From Gemmatimonadota bacterium (GTDB lineage: Bacteria; Gemmatimonadota; Gemmatimonadetes; Longimicrobiales; Gaopeijiaceae), in NCBI GenBank assembly GCA_028873845.1, contig JAPPNO010000041.1, positions 1 through 42,984 on the forward strand: 42,984 nucleotides of DNA. The letters run 5' to 3'. The notes below the pieces were generated by a model. It worked only from the letters and a program-made list of their open reading frames with translations. It searched no databases and was not told the origin of the DNA. Numbering within the stretch: the stretch's first letter is position 1; the number at the start of each line of letters is the position of its first letter. The position numbers and the translations under genes are program-made. This document shows positions 330 to 29,289 of the stretch, piece after piece.

Positions 330-1106
330 TCAGGCCGCTAGCACCTCCTCTAGGGAGCGGCGAATGCGGTCACGGTTGGCACCCAAGCTAGAGTATTGCC
401 GGTCACAGACGTCCGTCAGGCGGGCGAGCACGTTGCGGCCGATGGCCTGCTGGTTCTCGAACACCGCTAGCGACCGGAATAGGAGTCCCCATTTTTCGTA
501 CTGAAGCAGGGAGATCGTGGCGTCCCGGGTCTTCCCGTCACCCACGAGCCCGAAGACGATCAGCGGTCGTGTCGGATGTTCGATTCGACAGTCTGCCCTG
601 TAGATGCCCTTGGGATCATGCTCCTCGTGTCGCCAGTCGAAAACCATTCGGTCGTCCGGAATCGCATCGACCAGAAACGCCCGGAAGTCTTCCTGAAACG
701 TCGACCTGACTCGCTCGCGTGAGAGGTATGAGACATCGTTGATCTTCAGGACCGCTTGAATGAAGGAGAACAGAGCATCTCCAAAGCGCTCACCGGGCAC
801 CGGAAGTACCAGTTCACCGTCCCGGTCCTCCACACCGAAGGCCGTCAGGGCATTCGCAATGATCTTCTGGCGGGTTCCACGATGGAGATCCCGCTCGTCA
901 AGGTCGTAGGTTAGGCGCATGAACGTGGTGCCTTGGTCCGTCAGGTGCCAGCACCCTTCGCGTTGCTCCAGAGCGATTTCCAAACAGTCGCCATCGTCGT
1001 ACTCGAACGGATTGGCGATTAGGTAGCGGCCCAACCCTTCGGGCACCAAGTCGATCTCGCGACACACCCGGTCCCGGAACGACGCCACGATCCGATCAGC
1101 CGTCAC
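330..1106 (-). CDS. DUF1828/DUF1829 domain protein
   Basis: 258 residues. The N-terminal half (about 15-110) has the D-G-D-x-L-E-I-x-L and W-H-L-T-D-x-G-x-T pattern of DUF1828. The C-terminal half (about 150-250, with V-F-D-W and a Y-E-K-W-G segment) fits DUF1829; the two domains are commonly fused. Biochemical function is unknown; members are scattered in accessory regions, often next to a second small gene. The ATG overlaps the stop of the upstream gene by four bases (ATGA at 1103-1106), so the two are translationally coupled. Domain names are recalled from family knowledge, not searched. Confidence 0.7.
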   Translation of the reverse strand: MTADRIVASFRDRVCREIDLVPEGLGRYLIANPFEYDDGDCLEIALEQREGCWHLTDQGTTFMRLTYDLDERDLHRGTRQKIIANALTAFGVEDRDGELVLPVPGERFGDALFSFIQAVLKINDVSYLSRERVRSTFQEDFRAFLVDAIPDDRMVFDWRHEEHDPKGIYRADCRIEHPTRPLIVFGLVGDGKTRDATISLLQYEKWGLLFRSLAVFENQQAIGRNVLARLTDVCDRQYSSLGANRDRIRRSLEEVLAA

Positions 1107-3532: not shown

Positions 3533-4699
3533 ATGATGACGAAGAGGCTGACCCGGAAGTCCGCCGCGCGCCTACTGACCGGTGGCGCAACCCTCTGCCT
3601 TGCCTGCACGGGCGCGGAGGACGCGCCTCCCCAATCGGGCGTTGGAGAGTGGGAGCTCGTCGAGGATCTGCGGCTCGACGCGAACGCCGAGGACTTCTCC
3701 GTGGTCGGGTGGGTCTTCGTGGGACCGGAGGGTCACATCGTCGTGCCGGAGCCGCAGGACTCGCGGGTTCGCATCTACGACTCGACCGGAACACTGGTGA
3801 CGATGGTCGGGAGGAGTGGGGAGGGGCCCGGAGAATTCCGACAAGTGGGGCCCGTCTTTTGGGCTGCGGACACGTTGGTCGTGTGGGATGTGCAACTCAA
3901 CCGCGGAATGTACCTCCTGACGGACGGGACTCTGGTGCGCACGGAGACTGGGCGGTTCCTTGGCCGGGACCCCCGTGCTTCGGGAGTGGATAGCACCATC
4001 GTCTTCTTCGTCCCCCTGGCCGTGGATGCCGAGGGTGCGAAAATCGGGGAGGCCCGCCTGAGGATTTCAGGCGGCGGCAGGGGCTGGGGGGAGAACGCGT
4101 TTGTCAGGGTGTCGGGCGATGGGGAACCCTCCGTGGTCGCCACGCCGCCGAACCTGGAGGATGACCTGGTCGTCGTATCCGGCCTGGGCAACCCGGTTCC
4201 CTTCGCCTTCCGGGCGCGAGCCGGCATCGCAGCGGATGGAAGCCGATTCCTGTTCATGACGGCTGATCAATCGACCCTCGAACCGACGTTCAACCTGACG
4301 CTGGTCCGCCCGACCCACGACACGGTGTTCTCACGGTCCTACGCGTACCCCGGGGAGCCGATCCCCGATTCGGCAATGGAACGCGGCCTCGCCGACATGG
4401 TGCCGGAGAACGAGCTTGCCCGCCGCTTCCGGGCCCTGGCCCGCGATCGCGCGCCCTTGGTCTACCCGCCAACCGACGTCACGCTCGGTCTCGACGGGAC
4501 GATCTGGGTGGAACTGCGCCGGACGGAAGGTGGCACGCCCGTGCACGCGCTGAGCGAGTCGGGAGACCCGATCGGTTCCCTGCTTCTGCCGGCGCGATCG
4601 CGCATCCAGCAGGCCAGCATGACGCACGTGTGGGTGACGGAATACGACCCGCTGGATCTCGCCAGTGTGGTTCGATACCGGGTGATTCGCGGGAACTGA
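3533..4699 (+). CDS. Secreted 6-bladed beta-propeller protein (lipoprotein-like)
   Basis: 388 residues from the ATG at 3533, chosen because it follows GAGG and gives a basic N-terminus (M-M-T-K-R-L-T-R-K-S), a hydrophobic stretch and a Cys at a lipobox-like site (L-C-L-A-C). The body has repeated W/V-D-x-x-G blades and the family signature G-R-S-G-E-G-P-G-E-F. These BF2992/NHL-like propellers are exported; ligands are generally unknown. It follows the synthase by 46 bases. A short copy of the synthase 3' end lies just downstream (4727-4771). Confidence 0.8.
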   Translation: MMTKRLTRKSAARLLTGGATLCLACTGAEDAPPQSGVGEWELVEDLRLDANAEDFSVVGWVFVGPEGHIVVPEPQDSRVRIYDSTGTLVTMVGRSGEGPGEFRQVGPVFWAADTLVVWDVQLNRGMYLLTDGTLVRTETGRFLGRDPRASGVDSTIVFFVPLAVDAEGAKIGEARLRISGGGRGWGENAFVRVSGDGEPSVVATPPNLEDDLVVVSGLGNPVPFAFRARAGIAADGSRFLFMTADQSTLEPTFNLTLVRPTHDTVFSRSYAYPGEPIPDSAMERGLADMVPENELARRFRALARDRAPLVYPPTDVTLGLDGTIWVELRRTEGGTPVHALSESGDPIGSLLLPARSRIQQASMTHVWVTEYDPLDLASVVRYRVIRGN

Positions 4700-6092: not shown

Positions 6093-7309
6093 GGCCCAAG
6101 CGCCCCGAGCGGGATCACGCTCACGCCATCCGGACGGACATACCCGTACCCGCAATCGACGATTACGCCCAACGCGGCGGGTTCTCCACATCGGCTCGTG
6201 TCGACCCTGTCCGCAAACTTCAGGAGTGAGCGCCCCGCGCCGTCGATCCGGCTCAGTCCGAGCTTGATCTCGAAGGCCGCCCACCGCCCGGGGCCGGCAT
6301 CGACGACGGCGTCCACTTCGAGGCCGGTGTGATCGCGGTAGTGATAGACCCTTGCGCCCATTGCCTGAGCGTGGACGCGCAGATCCCGGATCACCATCGA
6401 TTCGAACAGAAGCCCGAACCAGGAGAAGTCGTGAAGGAGGTGGTCCGGACCCGTGCCGAGTGCCGCCGCCGCGATGGAAGGATCCACGAAGTGACGCTTT
6501 GGAGAGACCTGAAGACGGGAGCGTGACCTCAGGTGGGGTGCCCACGGCGGCTGGTCCTCCACAACCATGAGGCGTTCGAGGCCGGTGAGGTAGGAGCGGG
6601 CGGTGTGGTCCGTCATCGAGGCCTGCTCCGGACCGGCAACGTCGCGCGCGATCGCTGCCAGAGACGCGGAGGTCGCGACGTTTCGAGCCAGCGAACGCAT
6701 GAACCGGTGGACTCGGTCCGGGTCCCGCCGGACGCCGTCAACCCGCTGAAGGTCGGCACGGCAGATGTCGTCGACGTAGCCCCGGTTCACGCGCAAGGCC
6801 TCTTCGGCCGACGATGCGAGGTGGCCCGGCCAGCCACCGACGCAAACGAGACGAGCGAGGTCGTGCACGGACAAGTCGGCCGTCGGATGGTGCACGGGCA
6901 CTCCACTGAGCACATTCCGCAACGACACCTTGCCGGTGCTGGAGCCCAGCTCGAAGAGGGACATGGGGCGAAGGCGCAACCGGACGATTCGGCCGGCACC
7001 GGTGTGACGTGTGATGTCATCGGGTGGAACGGCCGATCCTGTGAGAATGAAATGACCCTTTCCGGGACGCGCATCGACCGCGCGCCGAACGTGGTTCCAG
7101 ATCACCGGGGCCGTTTGCCACTCGTCGATCAGCCGGGGAGTTGCCCCTTCGAGCACCAGGCCGGGACTGACCGCGATCATGTCCTGTGCTCTCCGGTCCA
7201 CATCCAGAAGGACCTCGCTTGCGGCTATCTGCCGGGCAGTCACCGTCTTGCCGCAGGCTCTCGGGCCTTCGATCAGGACTGCTCCGGCCGCCGCCAGGCA
7301 CTGTTTCAA
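6089..7309 (-). CDS. AAA ATPase with DUF4143 C-terminal domain
   Basis: 406 residues from a TTG at 7309. Walker A G-P-R-A-C-G-K-T lies near residue 15, the Walker-B-like R-L-I-D-E-W-Q around 60, and a sensor-like L-T-G-S at ~90. The C-terminal half is DUF4143 with a nuclease-like D-x(n)-E-I-K-L. These proteins are common in accessory regions and of unknown function. In-frame homology-like sequence (Y-T-Q-R-V-A-D-E-E) continues about 12 codons above the TTG, but no ATG or GTG is present before the stop near 7400. The start may be non-standard or damaged. A tandem repeat array lies just upstream. Confidence 0.75.
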   Translation of the reverse strand: MKQCLAAAGAVLIEGPRACGKTVTARQIAASEVLLDVDRRAQDMIAVSPGLVLEGATPRLIDEWQTAPVIWNHVRRAVDARPGKGHFILTGSAVPPDDITRHTGAGRIVRLRLRPMSLFELGSSTGKVSLRNVLSGVPVHHPTADLSVHDLARLVCVGGWPGHLASSAEEALRVNRGYVDDICRADLQRVDGVRRDPDRVHRFMRSLARNVATSASLAAIARDVAGPEQASMTDHTARSYLTGLERLMVVEDQPPWAPHLRSRSRLQVSPKRHFVDPSIAAAALGTGPDHLLHDFSWFGLLFESMVIRDLRVHAQAMGARVYHYRDHTGLEVDAVVDAGPGRWAAFEIKLGLSRIDGAGRSLLKFADRVDTSRCGEPAALGVIVDCGYGYVRPDGVSVIPLGALGP

Positions 7310-7403
7310 CTCCTCGTCGGCGACACGTTGGGTGTAGTGCTCGATGCTGCGAGCTCCCGGATCACGGTGGTGAGGTTGCTGTGATGAAGGAGACTAACAG
7401 CGT

Positions 7404-7629: not shown

Positions 7630-8802
7630 ATGGCCTCCGACACCAAGCTGGTCACCCGGACCGTCAGCCGCAAGGCGTACCTCTCCAGAGCGGGACACCG
7701 GAACCTGTCGGACCTGTTCGGCCAACTGACCTGGCTGTGGAACATCGCGCTGTACCGCAGGAAGCAGGCGTGGATCGAGCGTGAGGAATCGGTCTCCTAC
7801 TACGACCAGTGCAAGGTGCTCACGAAGGCCCGTCGGGACCCAGCGTGGAGCCGGTTCCCGGTCATGGCCCAGCGGAGCGTCCTCCAGCGGCTTGACCGCG
7901 CCTACAGGCGGTTCTTCGAGCGGGTGAAGGCCGGTGGTGAGAAACCCGGACACCCGCGCTTCAAGCCGGGCGACCGGGGCATCCGCAGTTTCGAGGTCAC
8001 CACGCCCGTCAGGACCAATGGCAGGTGGTCATGGGTGGTGGTGAAGGGCGTGGGTCGGATACGATTCCGGGGTGGGGTTCCGGAGGGCAGGGTGAAGCAG
8101 GTCCGGGTCGTCCGCACCGCGCGCCGGGCAAAGGTCCAGCTGGTTGTCGAGCGACAGATCGAAGTCATCCCCGATCGGCGCCCCATGGTGGGCCTCGACA
8201 TGGGCATCAAGGCACGGGTCGCCCTGTCGACGGGCCAGACCGTACCCGGTGTCAGAATCGACCGGCGCGAGCTCAAACGCAGGCAGAGGCGGCTGTCCAA
8301 AGCCAGGCGGGGCAGTCGCAACCGGAGGAAGCGGAAGGCCGAGCTTGCCCGCGAGTGGCAGCGGGTCCGGGACCGGGAGCACGGCGCGCTCCATGAACTC
8401 ACCGCGGCCATCGTCCGCGACCATGGTGCCAATCTGGCCGTCGAAGATCTGCGGATACCGAACATGGTGCGAAACCGCCACCTGGCCCCCGCAATCCACG
8501 AACAGCAATGGGGCGCCGCCGTCCGAATGCTGAGCTACAAGGCTGAAAGCGCCGGTGGCTCGGTGACGACCGTCGCCCCCCACCATACGTCGCGTGAATG
8601 CAGCAGGTGCGGTGGGAGGCAGGACTTGTCGCTTGCCGTCCGGGTCTACCGCTGCTCCGACTGCGGACTGCACATCGACCGGGATGTGAACGCGGCAAGG
8701 AACGTGCTCCAGAAGGCCATGAGCCCGAATCCGGGCGGGAATTCCCCGGAACGCGCGGAGCGCCACCCGAGAGCGGGTGCAATACTGCCCGCAAGTGCGT
8801 AG
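7630..8802 (+). CDS. tnpB: TnpB-family RNA-guided nuclease (OrfB, IS200/IS605-like)
   Basis: 390 residues from the ATG at 7630 (GGAG upstream). An in-frame ATG at 7543 exists, but the family N-terminus starts at K-L-V-T-R-T-V. All three RuvC acidic sites are present: G-L-D190-M-G-I, A-V-E272-D-L and D350-R-D352-V-N-A-A-R-N. A four-Cys zinc ribbon sits between the last two (C324, C327, C342, C345). The order and spacing resemble characterised TnpB nucleases, which cut DNA using an omega RNA made from the element's right end. The nuclease looks intact. A structured 3' end and no tnpA neighbour support a TnpB-only element. Confidence 0.9.
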   Translation: MASDTKLVTRTVSRKAYLSRAGHRNLSDLFGQLTWLWNIALYRRKQAWIEREESVSYYDQCKVLTKARRDPAWSRFPVMAQRSVLQRLDRAYRRFFERVKAGGEKPGHPRFKPGDRGIRSFEVTTPVRTNGRWSWVVVKGVGRIRFRGGVPEGRVKQVRVVRTARRAKVQLVVERQIEVIPDRRPMVGLDMGIKARVALSTGQTVPGVRIDRRELKRRQRRLSKARRGSRNRRKRKAELAREWQRVRDREHGALHELTAAIVRDHGANLAVEDLRIPNMVRNRHLAPAIHEQQWGAAVRMLSYKAESAGGSVTTVAPHHTSRECSRCGGRQDLSLAVRVYRCSDCGLHIDRDVNAARNVLQKAMSPNPGGNSPERAERHPRAGAILPASA

Positions 8803-17499: not shown

Positions 17500-17679
17500 C
17501 TGCAAGCCTGCCCCCTCCCCATGTGAAACTAATTGTCTAGGATTTTTACCGAAAGATCGCTGGTCATCGCGGCGCAAGGGACGGACTGTCATGAGGTCGT
17601 CGTCTACCGGGCTTGTGTACGAGCACCACGGCATCAATCCTGGGGAAGGCCGGCCACCCTTCAGAACCCCCGGAATCAA

Positions 17680-18904
17680 ATGAAGCCGCCATTCCGCCAC
17701 ACCCTCCTTCTCTTCGCCGCGACCGCGTGCGGCGACCGGCCGGCCGGAGAAGACTCCCCCTTGCTTCACGCCACGGTGCGCGACAGCGCCGATGTGCGGA
17801 TCATCGAGAACCCGCGTCCGCCGACCGGCACCAGGCTGGATTGGCGGATCGGTTCGGAGCCCGAGGTCACAATCGGCGAAGTGGAAGGCGCGGAGCCCTA
17901 TCTCCTCGCCCGGGTATCGGACGCGCTCGTGCTGGCCGATGGCCGTATCGTCGTGGCGAACGGCGGTTCCCACGAGCTCCGGGTCTTCGACGCGTCGGGA
18001 TACCATGTCGCCACATGGGGACGTCGTGGAGAAGGACCCGGCGAGTTCACGAACCTCAGCCAGGTACATCGATGGCCCGGGGATTCCCTGCTTGCGCTGT
18101 ATTCGCAGGCCCGTCACCTCTCCGTCCTCGACTCCTCGGGCAACTTCGGCCGCTCCTTCACCCTGCAGCGAGGGTGGGCGTTCTTCACGGTGGAGTCGGT
18201 CTCGGCAACCGGCGCCATCCTCAGCTCCGATTTCGTCCGTCCGGGGAACCGGCCGGTGGGTTTCAGCCGTCTGCCGAGCCACTACCGGGTAAGAGGCCCG
18301 GAAGGGGAGACGCGATCCTCGCTGGGGTCTTTTCCCGGACCTGAAATGTTCGCCGTTCGCACCGCGCGCGGCTTGAGCGGCGGCGGGATCCCATTTCGTC
18401 ACCGGGTGTCGGCCTTCGCCTGGGGCGACTTTGCGGCCGTGGCGCAGAACGACACCTATGAAATCAGGGCCTTCGATCTCGACGGGACGCTGAGAAGAAT
18501 CGTCCGTCGCGATCACGAACTGGTCGCCCCTACCCGCCCACCTGGACGCATACATCGAGGATCGGGTCGCTGTACATCCGGAGGAAGAGCGCCCGGAGCG
18601 ACGGGCGGAGCTGCGCGAATCTATGCGGGACCGGCACGTTCCCGAGACCCATCCCGCCTACGCCGCGGCACAGAGCGACCTGGTGGACCATCTCTGGGTT
18701 CGAGAATACGCCCTCCCGGGCGGGGGGGACCCCACTCCGGTATGGACGGTCTTCGACCCCGAAGGGCAGGTCCTGGGATTCATGGAAACGCCCGCCGGGC
18801 TGGGAATCTTCGAAATCGGCGAGGACTACATCCTGGGCCTCGCCAGAGACGACCTGGGAGTGGAATACGTGCAGGTGTGGTCGCTGGAGCGGTCGGGGCG
18901 GTGA
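17680..18904 (+). pseudogene. 6-bladed propeller lipoprotein gene split by a frameshift
   Basis: The ATG at 17680 gives a short lipoprotein-type N-terminus (K-P-P-F-R-H-T-L-L-L-F-A-A-T-A-C). The frame carries V-R-D-S-A-D-V-R-I-I-E-N-P-R-P-P and W-G-R-R-G-E-G-P-G-E-F. Near 18535 it leaves frame; the C-terminal third continues in the +1 frame (A-H-L-D-A-Y-I-E-D-R ... W-T-V-F-D-P-E-G) to 18904. Comparison with the intact paralog at 29261-30532 (L-V-A-S-T-E-A-H-I-D-A-E) shows that two bases are missing there. Both halves are otherwise well preserved, so the lesion is recent or an assembly error. Confidence 0.8.
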
Positions 18905-21146: not shown

Positions 21147-21178
21147 CCCACGCCGACCCGCACATGTGGAACGAAGTC

Positions 21179-22339
21179 ATGTCGAACGTCCTTTCCCGGA
21201 AGTCTCCCCGGCCCAACGTCCGAGTCGCAGGCATCCTCACGGTCCTCGGAACCGTTCAAGCGCTGTTCCTTACCATCGCGAATCCCATCACCGCCCAGGC
21301 CTCCCCCGACGACAATCCGACCTGCCCGGATTGCGTGATCAGGTTCGACCTCCTCATGACGGCAGGTTCTCTGGACGGGCCGGGCGCCATCCCGGAGGAA
21401 CCCGGATCCGTGGCACGAGACAGTCGGGGACGACTCTACCTGGCCTTCCCCCAGGCGGGCGAGGTGGGTCTCTTCGACTCCACCGGCCGGCCGCTGCCGC
21501 CCGTCGGCCGCAGAGGGGAAGGTCCCGGCGAGTACCAGTGGCCGTACCTGATCCGGGTCGGCCAGTCGGATACCGTCATGGTACTCGACTTCAACCGGCA
21601 GCTGTCGGTCGTCGCCCCTTCCGGCAGTTTTGTTCGGCGGAGTCAGGTGCCGGTATCGGCGGCCGATTTCGTCGTCATCGGTAACGGGAACCTGGTATTC
21701 AGCGAATCCCCGCCGGCGACGCCCGGGGACTCCGAGGCGACGATCTTTCACGTCTTCAATCCCGGCCAGGACGTCGCCGACAAGTCCTTCCACAAGGTCG
21801 AAATCAAGGCCGGCGGCTTCGCACCGCGGTTTTACCTGGCGCCCGCACAGGACCCGGATCGCGTCTGGACGGCCACCGAGTCCGGTGATGGATACGAGGT
21901 CATGCTTTACGCCTCCGATGGAATCCTCGCGCGTCGGTTTGCAAGAAGTCCGTCGTGGCTCCGCCCCCTTCCGGCCGAGGATGATCTGGCCCCACCCGGA
22001 GCCTACATCTCCGGTCTCGCCGTGGTGGAGGACCGGGCGTGGATCGTCGGGCGCCACCCCGTTGATGAGTGGAGGCGCTACTGGAACCGCGAAATCTTCG
22101 GTGAGGGCCGGGGGGAGGTCAGCGCGCGCGAAATCGAGTTCGCCAAGCTCTATCGGAGCGTGGTCGACGTGGTGGACATCGGGACCGGGGAATTGGTGAC
22201 ATCGGCACAGGTTCCGGGTCTCGTCCTGGGTCTCCTCCCCAACCTGTACGTCGCCACATACCGCGAGGATGATGCCGGGGTGCCATACGTCGACGTATTC
22301 CGCATGTCGATTTCACGCCGGTCCGGTGGGGGAAACTGA
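21179..22339 (+). CDS. Secreted 6-bladed beta-propeller protein
   Basis: 386 residues from the ATG at 21179 (an in-frame ATG at 21164 has no ribosome site). The N-terminus is basic then hydrophobic and ends I-T-A-Q-A, a signal peptide. V-G-R-R-G-E-G-P-G-E-Y is the family signature; the protein ends like a last blade (Y-R-E-D-D-A-G-V-P-Y-V-D-V-F-R). Another frame continues immediately with a second last-blade sequence (22336-22491). It follows the M56 gene by 32 bases and may be co-transcribed. Confidence 0.8.
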   Translation: MSNVLSRKSPRPNVRVAGILTVLGTVQALFLTIANPITAQASPDDNPTCPDCVIRFDLLMTAGSLDGPGAIPEEPGSVARDSRGRLYLAFPQAGEVGLFDSTGRPLPPVGRRGEGPGEYQWPYLIRVGQSDTVMVLDFNRQLSVVAPSGSFVRRSQVPVSAADFVVIGNGNLVFSESPPATPGDSEATIFHVFNPGQDVADKSFHKVEIKAGGFAPRFYLAPAQDPDRVWTATESGDGYEVMLYASDGILARRFARSPSWLRPLPAEDDLAPPGAYISGLAVVEDRAWIVGRHPVDEWRRYWNREIFGEGRGEVSAREIEFAKLYRSVVDVVDIGTGELVTSAQVPGLVLGLLPNLYVATYREDDAGVPYVDVFRMSISRRSGGGN

Positions 22340-22491
22340 GGCGGGTCTTCGCGAAGGACGGCCGGCACCTTGGAATCGTCGAAGTGCCCGCGCAACTCTC
22401 GGTGCTGCAGGTCGGGGCCGATTTCATCCTCGCGCAGTCCAATGACGATCTCGATGTCCATTACGTTCGCCTGTACCGGATCGGGAAGTGA
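22336..22491 (+). pseudogene. C-terminal remnant of another propeller gene
   Basis: Fifty-one codons ending at TGA 22489-22491 read V-F-A-K-D-G-R-H-L-G-I-V-E-V-P ... D-L-D-V-H-Y-V-R-L-Y-R-I. This matches the final blade of intact paralogs (V-F-D-P-E-G-R-V-L-G-F-V-E-T-P ... E-L-G-V-E-F-I-Q). There is no start codon; it abuts the preceding gene's stop, which suggests a deletion joined two propeller genes, or a duplicated last blade out of frame. Confidence 0.6.
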
Positions 22492-22676: not shown

Positions 22677-24083
22677 CTACTTGACCGATGGCAGCATTCC
22701 GGGACAGGGTTCACCGCTGATCCGGCGTAACGGGTGGATCGACACCTTGTTGGTGCTGCCCATGTAGACTTGGAATCCCCCGCTCCCCTGCTCCATATCC
22801 TGCTGAAAGACCAGGATGCTGTCGCCGTGAACGCGTACGGGGATGCGGGCCATGTCGGTAGCGGGGTTCTTCTGGATCATCGCGTAGCAGCCGCTGTCCG
22901 GGTCGATGACTGTGCCCGCCGTGCGCCAGTCGGCGCCCAGCAATGCGAGATTCCCACGGTCGTCGATGGAGGGTTGCACGTTCTTCGACCATGGCGGGCA
23001 TGGGCGTCCAGCGATCTGGCAACCCCAATCCTCGGTGAAATCCGTTGGAACGGCGATTCGCTCCGCTTCGCCGTTTAGCCGGTACGCGAATACGGAGTCC
23101 GGGCCTTCCTCGTAGGACAGTACGACAAAGGCCCGGTCCTCCGTACAGGCGATTCGTGACAACGCCATCGTGATTCCCAGTGCACGGCCACGCTCAATTG
23201 ACGTAGTGGCAATCGTGTGGCCAAGCGCGGCTTCCGGCCCTATGACCTCCGTTTCGTGCCGGAGTATCCCGTTGGGGATCGGCACGGTAGGCTTCCCGTC
23301 AAGGTCGCAGACCGCACGACGCATGGGCGCCTGCGGAGTCCACGAACTGATGGGACTGTCATTCGGATCAAGTGTGATGACCCGGTTCATGCCGGAAACA
23401 AACAGGTGGTCGTCCGGGGCAAGCGCGAAAGCCTGCCTGCCCTGAGAAAACTCGAACGGCCCGTCACCACGAGGTGTCCGAATCGTTCGGAGCCACTCGC
23501 CCGTCTCCAGGGAGAACACCATGATCCCATTCGGCTCTTCGGCATCGTCTACGTAGAGAATCCCACGGGACCAATCGGCCATCTGCTCATCTGCATTACC
23601 CAAACGCTGCCTGACTACTCCCCCCTGGGTTGGAATCGCTGGCACTCCGCCGAGATCGCACACGTCAGTGGTCGGTGGGGCTAGCGGGCGCCAGGAATTG
23701 ACGGGCTCACCATCCAGATCGAACTCTACGACGCTCAGGAAGCCGTTGACATAGAGGCCGCCATTTCGAGCGAGCCCCGTGCCGTGCACACCGTATGGAA
23801 GCTCGTAAGGCCCTTCGCCTTTCGGCGTCGAAACCGTTCGGAGCCACTCTCCAGTCTCGAGCGAGAAGACCATGATTCCATTTGGTTCCTCCGTATCGGT
23901 GACGAAGAAAAGGCCGCGGTTCCAGTCGAACGCCAGGTCATCGACCCTCATATCCCGATTCCACGGATCGTCGATTATCGTCCGTCCACCAGTGAAGTCG
24001 ATTTCCACCACCTGCTGGGAAGAGGCCGGAGATACGACCAGCAAGAGAAGCCCGACAGCCCAGGGGGGAGATAGTCTTGACAT
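22677..24083 (-). CDS. Secreted propeller-like protein with a duplicated 117-residue unit
   Basis: 468 residues from the ATG at 24083 (signal peptide S-P-P-W-A-V-G-L-L-L-L-V-V-S-P-A-S-S-Q). Residues 53-159 and 170-276 are near copies offset by 117: both contain E-E-P-N-G-I-M-V-F-S-L-E-T-G-E-W-L-R-T, then T-P-x-G-x-G-P, S-W-x-P-x-A-P and V-C-D-L. W54/W171 and C142/C259 correspond. The repeat is also visible in the DNA (about 23577-23927 and 23226-23576). The signature differs from the canonical G-E-G-P-G-E-F (K-G-E-G-P-Y-E, R-G-D-G-P-F-E). It follows the next propeller on the same strand with 83 bases between them. Confidence 0.75.
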   Translation of the reverse strand: MSRLSPPWAVGLLLLVVSPASSQQVVEIDFTGGRTIIDDPWNRDMRVDDLAFDWNRGLFFVTDTEEPNGIMVFSLETGEWLRTVSTPKGEGPYELPYGVHGTGLARNGGLYVNGFLSVVEFDLDGEPVNSWRPLAPPTTDVCDLGGVPAIPTQGGVVRQRLGNADEQMADWSRGILYVDDAEEPNGIMVFSLETGEWLRTIRTPRGDGPFEFSQGRQAFALAPDDHLFVSGMNRVITLDPNDSPISSWTPQAPMRRAVCDLDGKPTVPIPNGILRHETEVIGPEAALGHTIATTSIERGRALGITMALSRIACTEDRAFVVLSYEEGPDSVFAYRLNGEAERIAVPTDFTEDWGCQIAGRPCPPWSKNVQPSIDDRGNLALLGADWRTAGTVIDPDSGCYAMIQKNPATDMARIPVRVHGDSILVFQQDMEQGSGGFQVYMGSTNKVSIHPLRRISGEPCPGMLPSVK

Positions 24084-24166
24084 TGCTCCTACCTCGTCCT
24101 GATCGTCCCGCAAATGGTCCCGTAGTCACACATCAACGCGTAGGGTTCGGGGAGACGAGTCCTCCC

Positions 24167-25516
24167 TTAGTTGGTCGCCGTCGGTTCACACGCTGACACC
24201 GAGATGGTGCCGACCAGAACGACCGGGACGTCGAATTCATCGACTTCGACAAAAGCCACCAACCCATCCGGCCCCATGGCGGCAGGCCAGCGGGCTTGGG
24301 TGGCTGGAATCGTTCCGAGGTACTGGCCGCCGGGATTCAGCAAGTCGATCGCAGCTGCCGGTTTGTTCATCTGGTTCGTCTGCAGTACACGGTGGAGGTT
24401 GTGACCGCCGGGGTTCGCCGATCCGTCAGCGGGAAAGCCTGATTCGGGCATCCTCCGAATCCAGATCGTGCCGTCCCATGCCGTGAGCAGGTCGTCGACC
24501 AACGGCACTTCATCGGCGAATTCCATGGTCGCGATGGCCGCCTCCTGCATCGCTTCCTGGCTCGAAAGAACATCTTCGACCAGTGCAAGTTGGTTGCCAG
24601 CGCGCTGGCGCATTTCGGTCATCTCGGCTTCAAGAGCGTCAAGCTCCCGAGCGCGATAGGCTCGCTGGAAGCCCGCTGTGATGGGTTGCCGGGGCAACGC
24701 CCGACGCAGGATCCGCACCACTTGGCCGGATCCATCCAGAATCTTGATCGCGTAGCCGGATGAGTCGGACATGGCGATCCCGCCTCCGGGTAGCACGTCC
24801 CACAGGAGTCGTGGCAAGAATGCTACCCTCGACGCGGCACCTTCCGTCGTGAGACTGCCAGTGCCCAACCCGCCCATCGTGTAGTCGTGGGTGAACGCCA
24901 ACCTGGGCGGCGTCCATCCGGAAGCGAAAGGCGACACCCGCGCTAGCACTCCTTCCACATTGACGCGTACTACGTCACGAGGACCCTCGACCGTCCTTCT
25001 GGTGGTCGTCCGGGCGGACGTATCCTGCTCGGACCGGACGCGCATCGCCCTGTATTGGCCGAGGATCCCGCCGGACCGGTCCGCCCGGTAGATCATGTCC
25101 AAGGCATCGTCGGACAAGTCGTCCATCCGTGCCTGGTGGCGGAACCGGCCGTTGGGCTCGAACTCGTGGAAGACGCCCCGCTCATAGTCCGGTACGACGG
25201 AGTGGCCGTTTGCCAGGGCCACAAACCTCGTGGCCCCGGCAAACTCTCCCGGTCCTTGGCCCAACCGTCCGAACTCGAATCGGTCACCAGCAGCAGTCAC
25301 ACCGACCACCCTGAAAGCGCCAGCCCCCATCGCATCCCCGATTCTGACGGTGCCGAACCGGTCGAATCCGATGCTGGATACTGTCGTCAAGGTGCCCGAG
25401 ACACGGAACAGCTCGTCGAACCCGGTGCATAGAGGATCATCAGCCACCGGAAGGTTCACAACCTCCTGGGGCACTCCGAACTCCAACACCGATAGGACAA
25501 GGAGGAACGCGGCCAT
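24167..25516 (-). CDS. Secreted 6-bladed beta-propeller protein
   Basis: 449 residues. The ATG at 25516 lies 12 bases after the stop of the small cysteine gene, whose TAG is part of an AGGGG ribosome site, so the two are coupled. The N-terminus is hydrophobic (A-A-F-L-L-V-L-S-V-L) but lacks the usual positive charges. G-R-L-G-Q-G-P-G-E-F is the family signature. A long charged helix-like stretch (about 285-345, rich in E, M, Q and R) is unusual for the family. It pairs with the small secreted protein as in NVEALA/BF2992-type pairs; that analogy is inference. Confidence 0.75.
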   Translation of the reverse strand: MAAFLLVLSVLEFGVPQEVVNLPVADDPLCTGFDELFRVSGTLTTVSSIGFDRFGTVRIGDAMGAGAFRVVGVTAAGDRFEFGRLGQGPGEFAGATRFVALANGHSVVPDYERGVFHEFEPNGRFRHQARMDDLSDDALDMIYRADRSGGILGQYRAMRVRSEQDTSARTTTRRTVEGPRDVVRVNVEGVLARVSPFASGWTPPRLAFTHDYTMGGLGTGSLTTEGAASRVAFLPRLLWDVLPGGGIAMSDSSGYAIKILDGSGQVVRILRRALPRQPITAGFQRAYRARELDALEAEMTEMRQRAGNQLALVEDVLSSQEAMQEAAIATMEFADEVPLVDDLLTAWDGTIWIRRMPESGFPADGSANPGGHNLHRVLQTNQMNKPAAAIDLLNPGGQYLGTIPATQARWPAAMGPDGLVAFVEVDEFDVPVVLVGTISVSACEPTATN

Positions 25517-25528
25517 GATGAAATGCCC

Positions 25529-25870
25529 CTAGTCCTGGTCGGGATCTTGCATGCAGACCTTTACAGCCGCACTCTTCGCGTCCCTGCACTCTTGGCTCTC
25601 GTCGCCGAGCACCCGGCAGATTGCCCGGGCACCGGTCCATGCATCCAAGCAGTCCTGGTCGTCGGCCGTCGCCTGTGCGGCCGTCACCTCGAGCGGCACC
25701 GCGGTGGCCTGCAAGGCGCAACCGGTAGTCTCAACCGCCGGTACCTCGGTGATGGGCATGTCGAGAATGGTGCCCGCCCGGACTGGTCCCGGCGTGACCG
25801 TGGCCATGCCGGCCAGCACGAGTGCCAGCATCACAGGGATGCCGAACGGCAAAGCGAACTTCTTCATCAT
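25529..25870 (-). CDS. Small secreted five-cysteine protein
   Basis: 113 residues. The ATG at 25870 is set by a perfect AGGAGG (25881-25876) five bases upstream. Residues 1-33 are a signal peptide (M-M-K-K-F-A-L ... V-M-L-A-L-V-L-A-G). The mature part holds C51, C74, C85, C95 and C106 within acidic, Ala-rich sequence ending D-P-D-Q-D. No family recognised. It is translationally coupled to a propeller gene and preceded by a GC-rich hairpin that also occurs 212 bases further upstream. An odd Cys number leaves one free thiol or allows a partner disulfide. Confidence 0.7.
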   Translation of the reverse strand: MMKKFALPFGIPVMLALVLAGMATVTPGPVRAGTILDMPITEVPAVETTGCALQATAVPLEVTAAQATADDQDCLDAWTGARAICRVLGDESQECRDAKSAAVKVCMQDPDQD

Positions 25871-25895
25871 ACTGCCTCCTGAAGTGGAGTGAACG

Positions 25896-25925
25896 GACCC
25901 GGGAGGCGATTCCCCCCGGGATCCC
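25896..25925 (-). promoter_or_regulatory. Leader hairpin, copy A
   Basis: In the minus-strand RNA, CCCGGGGGG pairs with CCUCCCGGG (one G-U) around a five-base AAUCG loop, extended by GGA/UCC. It ends about 15 bases before the AGGAGG of the small cysteine gene. Copy B at 26108-26137 has the same layout with different bases. Confidence 0.5.
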
Positions 25926-26295
25926 ACGATTCCGCCAAGGTGGCGGAACATTCATTGAGACCGCAGTCCGGGTGGTCCCCAAGTCCAACGCCTAGCAGGT
26001 CCGAGACCCACCACGAGCGGAAAGACCTGCGCCGGGTCCCGGCAGGGTCCCAAGGCTGAACGGGGCGTGCAATTGTGAAACAAGACACCTCCTGTGAAGT
26101 CGGTGGAGGACCGGAGGAGCTAATCCCCTCGGGGTCCCGGTTGGCCCGCCCTTTCGACGGACGACGACGAGCCAGCGAGACTGGCTTCCACTAACAGACC
26201 AGTTCCGAGCCCGGAAGTGTGCAATTTGGTCCGGCGGCCACCTGATGATTCCCGGCTCCAGGCCATCGCCCGCCCCGGGACAATCCTGGAGCGTC
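25926..26295. other. Intergenic region holding the duplicated leader
   Basis: Apart from the two leader copies, the stretch contains a small hairpin AGCCAG/CTGGCT (26170-26186) between the thioredoxin-fold gene and copy B. A 73-codon minus-strand frame (26088-25867) ends inside the start codon of the small cysteine gene, but its GTG directly abuts the Shine-Dalgarno, so it is not called. Confidence 0.4.
26108..26137 (-). promoter_or_regulatory. Leader hairpin, copy B, followed by an orphan Shine-Dalgarno
   Basis: GAGGGG pairs with CUCCUC around AUUAG, extended by GGACC/GGUCC. About 15 bases later a perfect AGGAGG (26093-26088) occurs, but no convincing gene follows: a TTG frame of 42 codons starting at 26083 has no signal peptide or domain. 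Copy B may be the relic of a duplicated leader-plus-gene unit. Confidence 0.45.
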
Positions 26296-26844
26296 CTATT
26301 CCCGACCTCCGCCTCCGATGGACCGTGCCACCTCAGCGAGCCGGGAACCATGACCTTCGGCCACCACGCGTCCGTCCGTACCGACTGCAAACACCCAGGG
26401 TGTCCGTCTCGTCAGAGGATGTTCACGGCCGGCTTGGCCCACCGAAGCAACTCGAACGTTCCAGTCCATCTCCCGTGCGTAGCGTACCGCCGCCGGAAGC
26501 GGGCCCGATGACACCGCGTACGTCCGGGGGCGCTCGGAGCCCTGGCTCGCGAGCCAGTATGCCCAGCTCTCCGCGACCCGAACGGAATAGGGGCAGTCCG
26601 GGTCAAACACCAACAGGAGCGTTTCGTCCGGCGCACCCAGTTCGATCTTCGCGCCGTCGGAGTCTCTCATCACCAGGTCGGACACGTCGTGCCCGACGGT
26701 AATGCGCGGGGCGAGCGTATGACGCTCCACCGTGCGGCGTTCCAACGCGACCACCTGGCCGACCGCCAACACGGACAGCAGCGCCAGGACGGCACCCTTC
26801 AAACGGATTGTCTCAAGAAACCCAATGTTGCTCGGTCGAACCAA
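26296..26844 (-). CDS. Membrane-anchored thioredoxin-fold protein with C-P-Y-S site
   Basis: 182 residues from a TTG at 26844 preceded by GGGAAGGAAG. One membrane anchor at ~15-35, then V-F-D-P-D-C84-P-Y-S87-V-R-V-A-E-S-W, the thioredoxin-like active-site region, with a later T-P-W-V-F-A-V cis-Pro loop and G-H-G. The resolving Cys is Ser, so it would act monothiol-like or as an isomerase/reductase variant. Position upstream of a secreted cysteine protein and divergent from an eight-Cys peptide suggests a role with their thiols; that is inference. Confidence 0.7.
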   Translation of the reverse strand: MVRPSNIGFLETIRLKGAVLALLSVLAVGQVVALERRTVERHTLAPRITVGHDVSDLVMRDSDGAKIELGAPDETLLLVFDPDCPYSVRVAESWAYWLASQGSERPRTYAVSSGPLPAAVRYAREMDWNVRVASVGQAGREHPLTRRTPWVFAVGTDGRVVAEGHGSRLAEVARSIGGGGRE

Positions 26845-27189
26845 GATCTTCCTTCCCTTTCGTTCTGTTGTGTAACCCTGAAGAGCTGGTAGGAGCACTC
26901 CGGACGGCCGCGACCGGCAGCTACGTCGGCGCACCACTCCCATCAATCAGACCAATCTTCGGACCATGATCGTGCAAGCCCGGTGATCTCTGGATCCCTG
27001 CGCGGATTGCCGGTCTGCCACGCCAGGGCGCCGTGGCCTCGGATCCGGACGAGCATCCCGCAACGGGGCGGACGAGCAGCCGACGGCCACCGCATTGCAC
27101 GTTTTCTTCGCGCCAGCTGGTCTGTTATGTGGAGATCAGTTCCCCACCGATCGGGCGCGCCCGTTCAGCCCGAGAAAGAGAAGGCCACC
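26845..27189. promoter_or_regulatory. Divergent promoter region between the two arms of the cysteine-peptide locus
   Basis: About 345 bases separate the minus-strand thioredoxin-fold gene from the plus-strand cysteine-rich peptide. No clear -35/-10 pair could be fixed. No coding sequence recognised on either strand. Confidence 0.35.
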
Positions 27190-27391
27190 TTGCGAACATC
27201 CATTGTCGTACTCATCCTGCTGAACATTCCTGCTCGGGACCGCGCTGCTGGCCCCGTCCCCGAGTCGGGCCATCGTCGATGTGCCGACTCGCTGCTGTCG
27301 CGGCGAGGGTCCGGACGCTTATTGTTGCCACCTGTGCTGCGTGCGGGGTCCGTACTGCGAGCATGACAGTGACTGTCGGGACGCCGACTAG
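27190..27391 (+). pseudogene. Secreted eight-cysteine peptide gene interrupted by a one-base shift
   Basis: From TTG 27190 (AGAAGG upstream) the frame reads R-T-S-I-V-V-L-I-L-L-N. Moving one base forward at ~27226 continues F-L-L-G-T-A-L-L-A-P-S-P-S-R-A, completing a normal signal peptide. It then reads through to TAG 27389-27391 with a mature part bearing CC-x8-CC-x2-CC-x5-C-x5-C and an acidic end (D-C-R-D-A-D). Without the shift neither frame makes sense. It could be a sequencing error, a recent mutation or a programmed shift. It lies 41 bases before the membrane-protein gene, so it would be the first gene of that operon. Confidence 0.6.
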
Positions 27392-27432: not shown

Positions 27433-28224
27433 ATGAAGAGGAATCGGGGGTTCCCAACCAGCATATGGCGATCGGTCGCGGGAGCGATGCTCCCCTGGCT
27501 TCTGTTGCTCGTCGTCGGGAATCTCTTCCTCATATGGCCACCACTGGACGGGGACGCGACGCTCCTGCGTTGGATGTGGATGTTCACCAACCACATCGCC
27601 TTCGTTGCCCCTTTCGTGCTCTTCGCCGCCGGGGTGACCCTGTGGCGGAAGCTGGGGTATTCGTGGCAAGTCCTTCGAGTCGGGGCGTTGGTAGGGATAT
27701 CGGTCGTTGGCGCCTCCTACCTCTTGGGGTCGTGGCTGGCCCCTCAACTGGACGATCGGTCTCTCGCCAGCCGGATCGTGGAGACGGAGGACACGCGCCG
27801 GTTCGGTCCAAGGACCCCTGTCGGAGTCGCGCGCAACCTCCGCTTCGTCGAAGCCAACCCTCCCGAGGAGTACAGCTTGCGGGCCGACACTCCACACCGG
27901 TTCCCGCCGAACGCGCTTCGCTGGGAGTTGCATTCTCCGGTGGCCTTGGCGGTGTTCGGACTGTTCAACGTGATCATCGGGGTGCTATCGGCCGAACTGA
28001 CTGTCGGTCTGGCCCGCGGGAGTCGGCGAAACGCCCGTATCGTGATCGGCGTGCTGGGAGGGTTGGCCTTTTACGCGTGCCACGTTCTGGCGGGACCCGT
28101 CGAACCGTTCCTGCGGGACGGAACGATGCGTTCGGGCGTGGCCGCCGCCTGGGTGCCGCTGGTGCTCCCTGCTGCCGAATGCGTCGTCCTCGGTTACCTG
28201 GTCCGCAGGCGGAGGTATGGGTGA
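27433..28224 (+). CDS. Hypothetical multi-pass membrane protein
   Basis: 263 residues with about six membrane segments (two or three in residues 15-105, the rest in 180-260) around a periplasm-sized central stretch (about 110-180) rich in Arg, Glu and Pro. The topology recalls LptF/LptG-type permease subunits, but no diagnostic motif is seen. The TGA overlaps the GTG of the sigma gene (GTGA, 28221-28224), so the two are co-translated and probably linked in function. Confidence 0.65.
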   Translation: MKRNRGFPTSIWRSVAGAMLPWLLLLVVGNLFLIWPPLDGDATLLRWMWMFTNHIAFVAPFVLFAAGVTLWRKLGYSWQVLRVGALVGISVVGASYLLGSWLAPQLDDRSLASRIVETEDTRRFGPRTPVGVARNLRFVEANPPEEYSLRADTPHRFPPNALRWELHSPVALAVFGLFNVIIGVLSAELTVGLARGSRRNARIVIGVLGGLAFYACHVLAGPVEPFLRDGTMRSGVAAAWVPLVLPAAECVVLGYLVRRRRYG

Positions 28225-28874
28225 GCGATCCTACGGTACCCGGATCGCTCGGCTTTGGGGAAGTGCTCGCTGGCGGTTCCGGATCGAAGCCGACCGAGGA
28301 GGCGGCCGAGGACGCTCCCATCGAGACCCGGGACCGTCGACGGGGATATCGGGCGCGCTTCGCGATCCTGCTCAAGCGATTCGGACCCACGATCAGAGAC
28401 GTCGTCAATTCGTACAGCGAGGACAGGGACGATCGGGAGGACATGTACCAGGAAGTGTGCGTCCGCCTGCTGACCCGGGAGAAGCATTACCGGGATATCG
28501 GGTCCTTGAGTGGCTGGGTCATCACACTGGCGCGTGGCGTCTGCAGGAACTGGCGCAAGTCACAGGCGGCAAGCAGCTCGGCCATCGACCGGTATTCCGC
28601 CGAGTTCCCGCCGGTCGAGGAATCCGATGCCCTGTTTGACGATCCTTCTCGACTCCTTCAGTATAAGAGGTTCCTTGAACGACTTGAGCGCGCCTTGGCC
28701 ACACTTCCTCGTCGTCAGGCCACAGCTTGGCGTCTCGTCCACATTGAGGGGAACAGCCCAAAACGGGCGGCACGCATCATGAAAGCGACTCCATCGACGG
28801 TCCGTTCACACATTCGGCACGCTCGGGTTCGACTCCGAGAACTCATGCAGGATGCTCGAGATGAGTTGTCCTGA
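28221..28874 (+). CDS. ECF-type sigma-70 family RNA polymerase sigma factor
   Basis: 217 residues from the GTG at 28221. Region 2 is visible as D-D-R-E-D-M-Y-Q-E-V-C-V-R-L-L with G-W-V-I-T-L-A-R after it; region 4 as L-P-R-R-Q-A-T-A-W-R-L-V ... S-P-K-R-A-A-R-I-M-K-A-T-P-S-T-V-R-S-H-I. There is an extra ~40-residue N-terminus. It is immediately followed by a zinc-finger anti-sigma, the standard arrangement for envelope-responsive ECF switches. It probably controls its own operon and perhaps the divergent arm. Confidence 0.88.
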   Translation: MSDPTVPGSLGFGEVLAGGSGSKPTEEAAEDAPIETRDRRRGYRARFAILLKRFGPTIRDVVNSYSEDRDDREDMYQEVCVRLLTREKHYRDIGSLSGWVITLARGVCRNWRKSQAASSSAIDRYSAEFPPVEESDALFDDPSRLLQYKRFLERLERALATLPRRQATAWRLVHIEGNSPKRAARIMKATPSTVRSHIRHARVRLRELMQDARDELS

Positions 28875-29289
28875 CCTGTCGGCGTTGGCCCGCGCGGGCG
28901 GGCCGCACGCGGACCCGGCAGTGGTGGAGCACCTGCGGACCTGCGCTTCATGTCGGCTCGATTGGCAGATTCAGCAGGGGACCCGTTACCTGCTTGATCC
29001 GGAGATCATGACCCGCGCGTTCGGCGATCTGGACGACAGGATCATTGCTCGGGCGACCGCGATCATGCGTCAGTCCGAGAGACTCCCCGGGTGGGGGCAT
29101 CTCGCCAGGTCGGGACTGCTGGTCGCTCTGGCGGCAGTCGCCGTCACATGGGCACCCGTGAACGCGGGCGTCACGTTGTCCGTCACACAAGTGGGGCTGT
29201 ACGCATTGGTGGGAGCTGTGGCGACGGTCTTGTATCTGAGGCGGATCGACGAGGCGGAGTGTGGCGGCGGACATCACCCGCACGAGTGA
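28852..29289 (+). CDS. Zinc-finger anti-sigma factor, membrane-bound
   Basis: 145 residues. The start overlaps the sigma gene by 23 bases (ATG 28852, or 28861). The N-terminus has C-P-D-L-S and the H-L-R-T-C-A-S-C zf-HC2 motif that holds ECF sigma factors. Two membrane segments follow (about 83-100 and 112-128). The very short periplasmic end is His/Gly rich. It most likely anchors and inhibits the preceding sigma factor. Confidence 0.8.
   Translation: MLEMSCPDLSALARAGGPHADPAVVEHLRTCASCRLDWQIQQGTRYLLDPEIMTRAFGDLDDRIIARATAIMRQSERLPGWGHLARSGLLVALAAVAVTWAPVNAGVTLSVTQVGLYALVGAVATVLYLRRIDEAECGGGHHPHE

What the first reader, a model, noticed from the sequence alone, without database searches (positions are those of the whole stretch)
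27190..27391. Hidden secreted eight-cysteine peptide, interrupted by a one-base shift
No single frame encodes it, so standard gene callers miss it. Joining two frames at ~27226 gives a textbook signal peptide plus a mature segment with CC-x8-CC-x2-CC-x5-C-x5-C. A chance join would be unlikely to give both. It heads an ECF sigma operon. It may be a toxin-like or redox peptide, and the shift could be error, decay or programmed.
Basis: partly seen in the sequence, partly recalled or inferred. Interest (0 to 1): 0.75.

Follow-up and report, generated by a model that had tools for sequence, protein, structure and literature searches.

The report
New eight-cysteine envelope peptide family
The interrupted small gene is a damaged or mis-assembled copy of a real, previously uncatalogued family of eight-cysteine membrane-envelope peptides that almost always sit beside the same two partner genes under their own alternative-sigma-factor switch, which points to a new three-part envelope module in a group of Gemmatimonadota bacteria.

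Summary
Two frames at 27190-27225 and 27230-27391 together give a hydrophobic N-terminus plus CC-x8-CC-x2-CC-x5-C-x5-C. The joined peptide has uninterrupted homologs, aligned across the junction, in most genomes of the genus (69-71% identity in the closest). I collected 58-59 distinct intact copies. All eight cysteines and one Asn inside the hydrophobic helix are invariant. No Pfam, NCBIfam, PHROGs or PDB family matches. The peptide belongs to a conserved module: 52 of 58 copies lie within 3 kb of an LptF/LptG-fold membrane protein and 51 of 58 within 3 kb of a thioredoxin-like protein, against none in 903 kb of control DNA. A bipartite promoter-like element stands upstream of the peptide operon, the divergent thioredoxin-like gene and a third propeller operon. 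It fits an autoregulated ECF regulon. The interruption is local to this copy: neighbours are intact, dN/dS is about 0.3, and relatives read through. So it is recent decay or an assembly error, not programmed frameshifting. 'Toxin' has no support. My preferred mechanism, inferred only, is a membrane-anchored, disulfide-stabilised small partner of the LptF/G-like protein, with the thioredoxin-like protein tending its thiols.

The parts
27190..27225 (+). First-frame part of the peptide gene: start codon TTG and most of the hydrophobic helix (LRTSIVVLILLN, ending in the invariant Asn)
27226..27229 (+). Site of the frame change: four bases where the intact homologs have one codon
   Evidence: DNA of six copies side by side
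27230..27391 (+). Second-frame part: end of the hydrophobic helix, linker and eight-cysteine domain, with stop
27178..27184 (+). Ribosome-binding site GAGAAGG, 5 nt before the TTG
   Evidence: sequence
27095..27124 (+). Promoter-like element TTGCACGWTY-N13-TGGTCTG before the peptide-LptF/G-like-ECF-anti-sigma operon
26948..26977 (-). The same element, exact match, before the divergent thioredoxin-like gene
26195..26224 (-). The same element (2 mismatches) before the Cys-containing secreted protein and two propellers
   Evidence: relatives carry it at the same place
27433..28224 (+). LptF/LptG-fold inner-membrane protein without the periplasmic beta-jellyroll
28221..28874 (+). ECF sigma factor (GTG start)
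   Evidence: PF04542, PF08281 above cut-off
28852..29289 (+). Putative membrane anti-sigma factor with Hx3Cx2C motif
   Evidence: (zf-HC2 below cut-off); motif seen in the sequence; motif definition from PMC7406223
29261..30532 (+). Secreted 6-bladed beta-propeller protein; overlaps the anti-sigma gene, so probably the same transcript here (inferred; not constant in relatives)
26296..26844 (-). Membrane-anchored thioredoxin-fold protein with one invariant active-site Cys (CPYS here)
25529..25951 (-). Secreted Cys-containing protein heading the third ECF-element operon
24167..25516 (-). Putative secreted propeller-like protein, third ECF-element operon
22677..24113 (-). Secreted 6-bladed beta-propeller protein, third ECF-element operon
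   Evidence: DUF5128

Best explanation
Shown by sequence: the stretch is one interrupted copy of a new family of roughly 59-82 residue peptides made of a single hydrophobic helix with an invariant Asn and an eight-cysteine C-terminal domain. They are encoded in a conserved module with an LptF/G-fold membrane protein and a thioredoxin-like protein, under an ECF-type promoter element. Inferred mechanism: an envelope signal releases the ECF sigma factor from its anti-sigma factor, and the sigma factor switches on its own operon, the divergent thioredoxin-like gene and the propeller operon. The peptide stays in the inner membrane by its helix and docks on the LptF/G-like protein as a small accessory subunit. 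Its cysteine domain folds in the periplasm with disulfides that the adjacent CxxS/T thioredoxin-like protein makes or corrects. In this genome the copy is off because of a recent lesion, or appears off because of an assembly error; the remaining operon is intact.
For: Intact homologs align across the junction. 58 aligned copies share 8 Cys and Asn12 with no exception. LptF/G-like gene within 3 kb in 52 of 58 and trx-like in 51 of 58, typically 17-150 bp and 40-1300 bp away, none in 903 kb of control. The second arm of the family pairs with a different membrane protein that is itself LptF/G-like (hhalign E 5e-6; PF03739 E 4e-4 in one member). The three same-genus genomes without the peptide also lack the A4-type membrane protein. 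The membrane partner's AlphaFold model (pLDDT 89) matches LptF/LptG with Z 14-18, next fold 8.8. Promoter element: two exact sites and one with 2 mismatches in the window, 0.28 expected at up to 3 mismatches; 5 in the 4.05 Mb genome at up to 2 mismatches, 0 in the reversed control; conserved in relatives. [AV]xA sites not clearly enriched, in line with a retained helix.
Against: No direct evidence of contact between peptide and membrane protein, of disulfides or of location. The cysteine domain is poorly predicted (overall pLDDT 68). Several copies have good cleavage-like sites, so a cleaved signal peptide is not excluded. No ATPase partner was seen in the cassette, and the genome has its own genuine LptF/LptG pair, so LPS transport itself is unlikely to be the task. 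Some members (L022, L024-L026, L028, L030) lack the element just before the peptide and have another gene order.
Confidence: 0.5

Rival explanations
1. The N-terminal helix is a cleaved signal peptide and the eight-cysteine part is released as a free peptide acting outside the cell (competitor-directed or host-directed).
For: Cys-scaffold with variable loops, many paralogs per genome (up to 7), frequent loss of copies (5 of about 64 broken); relatives include MAGs that are probably sponge-derived (titles; habitat from own knowledge).
Against: No dedicated exporter, maturase or immunity gene was seen to recur; the constant partners are an LptF/G-like and a thioredoxin-like protein; invariant Asn in the helix and weak cleavage-site signal; no toxin or bacteriocin family match.
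Confidence: 0.2
2. The peptide is the input side of the switch: a redox- or metal-responsive sensor whose cysteine state controls the anti-sigma factor through the LptF/G-like protein.
For: It is the first gene of the ECF operon, next to a thioredoxin-like gene and an anti-sigma with Hx3Cx2C; soluble zinc-binding anti-sigma factors are often redox sensors (PMC7406223).
Against: In membrane-bound anti-sigma factors that motif may be structural only (PMC7406223); tandem paralog units in G000:C121 hold several peptides with few ECF genes.
Confidence: 0.2
3. On the interruption (a separate question): it is a sequencing or assembly error and the real gene is intact.
For: Promoter element, RBS and both halves are conserved; dN/dS against the nearest homolog about 0.3 (0.20 for the last 38 codons), like the intact neighbours; the same assembly shows other frame breaks at about 3 per 106 kb of alignable coding DNA, one of them in this window (17656-18892).
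Against: Peptide copies are broken far more often per kb than their cassette neighbours (5 in 12.8 kb against 1 in 95.7 kb, p about 1e-4), and three of the five are certainly real (multiple lesions or deletions). The site is not a homopolymer.
Confidence: 0.4
4. On the interruption (a separate question): programmed +1 frameshifting makes the peptide.
For: Both halves are still conserved in sequence.
Against: All 58-59 intact relatives read straight through; no known slippery or stop-dependent site at the junction; the shift is absent in the closest copies.
Confidence: 0.03
5. Cofactor-bearing or electron-carrying small subunit, like the Cys-rich small subunit of methylamine dehydrogenase, with the thioredoxin-like protein as a MauD-like helper.
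For: One thioredoxin-like member matches MauD (E 3e-4); two peptides match the quinohemoprotein amine dehydrogenase gamma model weakly (E 0.029).
Against: No large subunit and no cofactor-forming enzyme recognised; matches far below credibility.
Confidence: 0.04

Closest known systems
LptF/LptG-LptC inner-membrane assembly (LPS export)
   Same: Membrane partner has the LptF/LptG transmembrane fold (Z up to 17.8); the peptide, like LptC, starts with one hydrophobic helix followed by a part that should lie in the periplasm; LptC's helix packs at the TM1G/TM5F gate (PMC6744409).
   Different: Membrane partner lacks the beta-jellyroll and falls below the Pfam cut-off; the peptide has a small cysteine domain instead of LptC's jellyroll; no LptB-like ATPase seen in the cassette; the genome has separate genuine LptF and LptG.
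ECF sigma / zinc-type class I anti-sigma regulons
   Same: ECF with regions 2 and 4, overlapping anti-sigma gene with Hx3Cx2C, bipartite element in front of its own operon and of a thioredoxin-like gene.
   Different: Target genes are an undescribed peptide, an LptF/G-like protein and propellers; redox control is not shown.
MauD/DsbE-type periplasmic thioredoxin-like proteins
   Same: Membrane-anchored thioredoxin fold with active-site Cys and TPW loop, beside a Cys-rich small protein.
   Different: Second active-site Cys is mostly replaced by Ser or Thr in this arm.
NVEALA / 6-bladed-propeller peptide pairs of Bacteroidales (recalled from memory, a lead only)
   Same: Small exported peptides encoded near secreted 6-bladed propellers.
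   Different: None of 23 members matched such a Pfam family at E up to 1; different cysteine pattern and partners.

Membership tests
LptF/LptG permease family (PF03739), for the membrane partner | Shared transmembrane fold | tested here: met
   Z 14-18 to LptF/LptG chains, next unrelated fold 8.8
LptF/LptG permease family (PF03739), for the membrane partner | Score above the family's curated cut-off | tested here: not met
   17.8 bits against 27.9
LptF/LptG permease family (PF03739), for the membrane partner | Periplasmic beta-jellyroll domain | tested here: not met
   no strand in the model, only helices
LptC, for the peptide | Single N-terminal membrane helix | tested here: inconclusive
   helix 2-20 predicted; cleavage not excluded
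LptC, for the peptide | Periplasmic beta-jellyroll | tested here: not met
   67-residue peptide with only two short strands in a low-confidence model; too small for a jellyroll
LptC, for the peptide | Helix docks on LptF/G | not testable with these tools
   no complex prediction available
Any catalogued peptide, toxin or bacteriocin family | Profile match | tested here: not met
   no credible match in Pfam, NCBIfam, PHROGs or PDB sequences; no plasmid match
ECF sigma factors | Sigma70 regions 2 and 4 above cut-off | tested here: met
Zinc-type class I anti-sigma factors | Hx3Cx2C motif and anti-sigma profile | tested here: inconclusive
   motif present (HLRTCASC), zf-HC2 only 14.0 of 22.2 bits
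Thioredoxin-like superfamily, for the divergent gene | Thioredoxin-fold profile match | tested here: met
   AhpC-TSA in 8 of 25 members, best E 5e-6; MauD E 3e-4 in one; the window's own member has no match alone
Thioredoxin-like superfamily, for the divergent gene | CxxC active site | tested here: not met
   CPYS in the window; CxxS/T in most of this arm, CxxC in several members of the other arm

The most novel reading that the evidence does not exclude
An undescribed three-part envelope machine: a bitopic eight-cysteine micro-subunit, an LptF/G-like half-permease without jellyroll, and a dedicated monothiol thioredoxin-like protein, switched on as a unit by its own ECF sigma factor and serving the export or surface delivery of the co-regulated propeller proteins.
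Probability: 0.25. Interest if true: 0.8.

Novelty: new variant of a known kind. Interest (0 to 1): 0.58.

Why it matters
A gene family with perfect conservation of nine residues in 58 copies and near-constant partners has no profile in any library searched: it is tiny and often starts with TTG. It gives an LptF/G-type membrane protein a candidate small partner outside LPS export, and makes a concrete ECF regulon (element, sigma factor, targets) testable in a phylum with few cultured members. The case also shows how an interrupted gene found by eye can lead to a real module.

Tried and rejected
The first profile was too diverse for the collection scan; a narrower one worked. Fold search with the peptide model gave nothing significant, as expected for a low-confidence model. 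A standard GGAAC-type ECF motif was looked for and not found as a shared feature; the conserved element is TTGCAC-type. Relatives were sought on plasmids and in viral contigs: none. No defence-system family match. Paper searches found nothing on the family. An apparent third frame break at 22340 turned out to be a remnant behind a complete propeller gene. Chance ORF rejected by homology; programmed frameshift rejected by the intact relatives.

Full report
What is in the sequence. The window is the whole of contig C34 (42,984 bases) of a 4.05 Mb metagenome-assembled genome in 137 contigs. Named relatives in the public collection are Gemmatimonadetes/Longimicrobiales MAGs. At 27190 a TTG start with a GAGAAGG ribosome-binding site opens a short hydrophobic frame.

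It is not chance. Searching the 23 held genomes of the genus with the joined 67-residue sequence gave intact, single-frame homologs covering query residues 1-66 (E 4e-27 and 69% identity in G003, 64% in G004, 71% in G006). Both halves and the junction are therefore homologous. A profile built without the window copy found the family in 20 of the 23 genus genomes and in 26 of 121 family genomes, with up to seven copies per genome. It occurs in one further genome at order level and one at class level, so it is expanded in one genus and sporadic elsewhere. I extracted 59 distinct intact copies. In the 58-row alignment only nine columns are invariant: the eight cysteines and an Asn in the middle of the hydrophobic helix. 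No credible match exists in Pfam, NCBIfam, PHROGs or PDB sequences.

The module. The window order is thioredoxin-like gene (minus strand), peptide, membrane protein, ECF sigma, anti-sigma, propeller. tblastn of these genes shows the same cassette in relatives. Profiles of each partner scanned over all loci put an LptF/G-like gene within 3 kb of 52 of 58 peptide hits (mostly 17-150 bp away) and a thioredoxin-like gene within 3 kb of 51. Several exceptions lie at contig ends. There were no hits in 903 kb of other DNA from two genomes of the genus. The three same-genus genomes that lack the peptide also lack the membrane protein. A second arm of the peptide family goes with another membrane protein; profile comparison links the two membrane families (E 5e-6), and one member of the second matches LptF_LptG in Pfam (E 4e-4).

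The partners. The membrane protein scores below the Pfam cut-off for LptF_LptG (17.8 of 27.9 bits). Its AlphaFold model is confident (pLDDT 89) and matches LptF/LptG chains at Z 14-18, with the next fold at 8.8. It has no beta-jellyroll. The genome carries its own genuine LptF and LptG elsewhere. The divergent protein is a thioredoxin-fold protein (AhpC-TSA in 8 of 25 members, best E 5e-6; MauD E 3e-4). Its first active-site Cys is invariant and the second is mostly Ser or Thr in this arm. The ECF factor is above cut-off for both sigma regions. The anti-sigma gene has an Hx3Cx2C motif; about half of membrane-bound class I anti-sigma factors carry it, and it may be structural rather than sensory (PMC7406223).

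Regulation. Upstream regions of the cassettes share TTGCAC(G/A)TTT and, 20 or so bases on, TGTC or TGGTCT. In the window the form TTGCACGWTY-N13-TGGTCTG occurs exactly at 27095-27124 (plus, before the peptide) and 26948-26977 (minus, before the thioredoxin-like gene), and with two mismatches at 26195-26224 (minus, before a Cys-containing secreted protein and two propellers). At up to three mismatches 0.28 matches are expected by chance; the pattern was drawn from the two exact sites, so the third site, the whole-genome count and the relatives are the independent part of this evidence. The whole genome holds five matches at up to two mismatches, none in the reversed control. One of them lies before a secreted Cys-containing protein and two propellers on contig C59. 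This is what an autoregulated ECF regulon looks like. That this ECF factor reads this element is inferred, not shown.

The interruption. Of about 64 copies seen, five are broken. The window copy has a single length difference. The G009 copy breaks in a run of eight C. The G004 copy has lost its 5' end. Of two others in this genome, one carries several lesions, including loss of the invariant Asn and a cysteine, and one is a deletion remnant. Per kilobase this is far more than in the cassette neighbours (5 in 12.8 kb against 1 in 95.7 kb), so real decay of these genes happens. The counting is rough, because broken peptides were found by profile and broken neighbours by tblastn. The window copy itself looks fresh: dN/dS against G003 is about 0.32 after the junction (0.20 over the last 38 codons), similar to the membrane protein (0.33) and ECF gene (0.40) of the same pair. 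The assembly has other frame breaks (3 in 106 kb alignable). Error and recent decay cannot be separated without reads. Programmed frameshifting is very unlikely, because no relative needs it.

How it most likely works. Shown: family, module, promoter element, predicted fold of the membrane partner. Inferred: the peptide's helix stays in the membrane (invariant Asn; [AV]xA sites 38 of 58 against 31.3 expected; AlphaFold helix 2-20), docks on the LptF/G-like protein much as the LptC helix packs at the LptG/LptF gate (PMC6744409), and its cysteine domain forms disulfides tended by the thioredoxin-like protein. The peptide works like LptC at most in its architecture. It is not an LptC, since the jellyroll is absent. 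I put the combined mechanism at 0.5, with a released peptide (0.2) and a redox or metal sensor for the ECF (0.2) as the main rivals.

Novelty. The peptide family is new to the libraries searched and the three-gene combination matches no system I know. The individual folds of the partners are known, so I file the whole as a new variant of a known kind (ECF-controlled envelope module with an LptF/G-type protein) and state the categorical reading separately with 0.25.

Noticed in passing
window 17656-18892 (+): A propeller paralog (63-70% identical to the 29261-30532 gene) changes frame near 18520-18535 and is another broken gene or error in this contig.
   Followed up: partly
window 22342-22488 (+): C-terminal remnant of another propeller gene behind the complete one at 21164-22339.
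   Followed up: partly
L106 (G000:C59:5000-17000), element at 7964-7993 (-): The same ECF-type element stands before a 217-residue secreted Cys-containing protein, a 65-residue Cys-rich ORF and two propellers, a probable in-trans regulon member.
   Followed up: partly
L061 (G000:C121:40000-59900): Three tandem units of CxxC thioredoxin-like protein, propeller and peptide, with a ~370-residue LptF/G-like membrane protein near the first two; the third unit has decayed (peptide and propeller both frame-shifted, invariant Asn lost).
   Followed up: partly
L062 (G000:C9) 947-1018 (-): Tail of a peptide gene fused by a deletion to the start of a propeller gene.
   Followed up: no
L017 3713-4138 (-), element at 4237; L076 and L077 elements near 7300-7346: Relatives also carry a small secreted Cys-containing protein or propeller genes behind the thioredoxin-like gene, with their own copy of the element.
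   Followed up: partly
L019 2270-3085, L080 8949-9764: Second LptF/G-like paralogs near the cassette that have no peptide gene recognised beside them.
   Followed up: no
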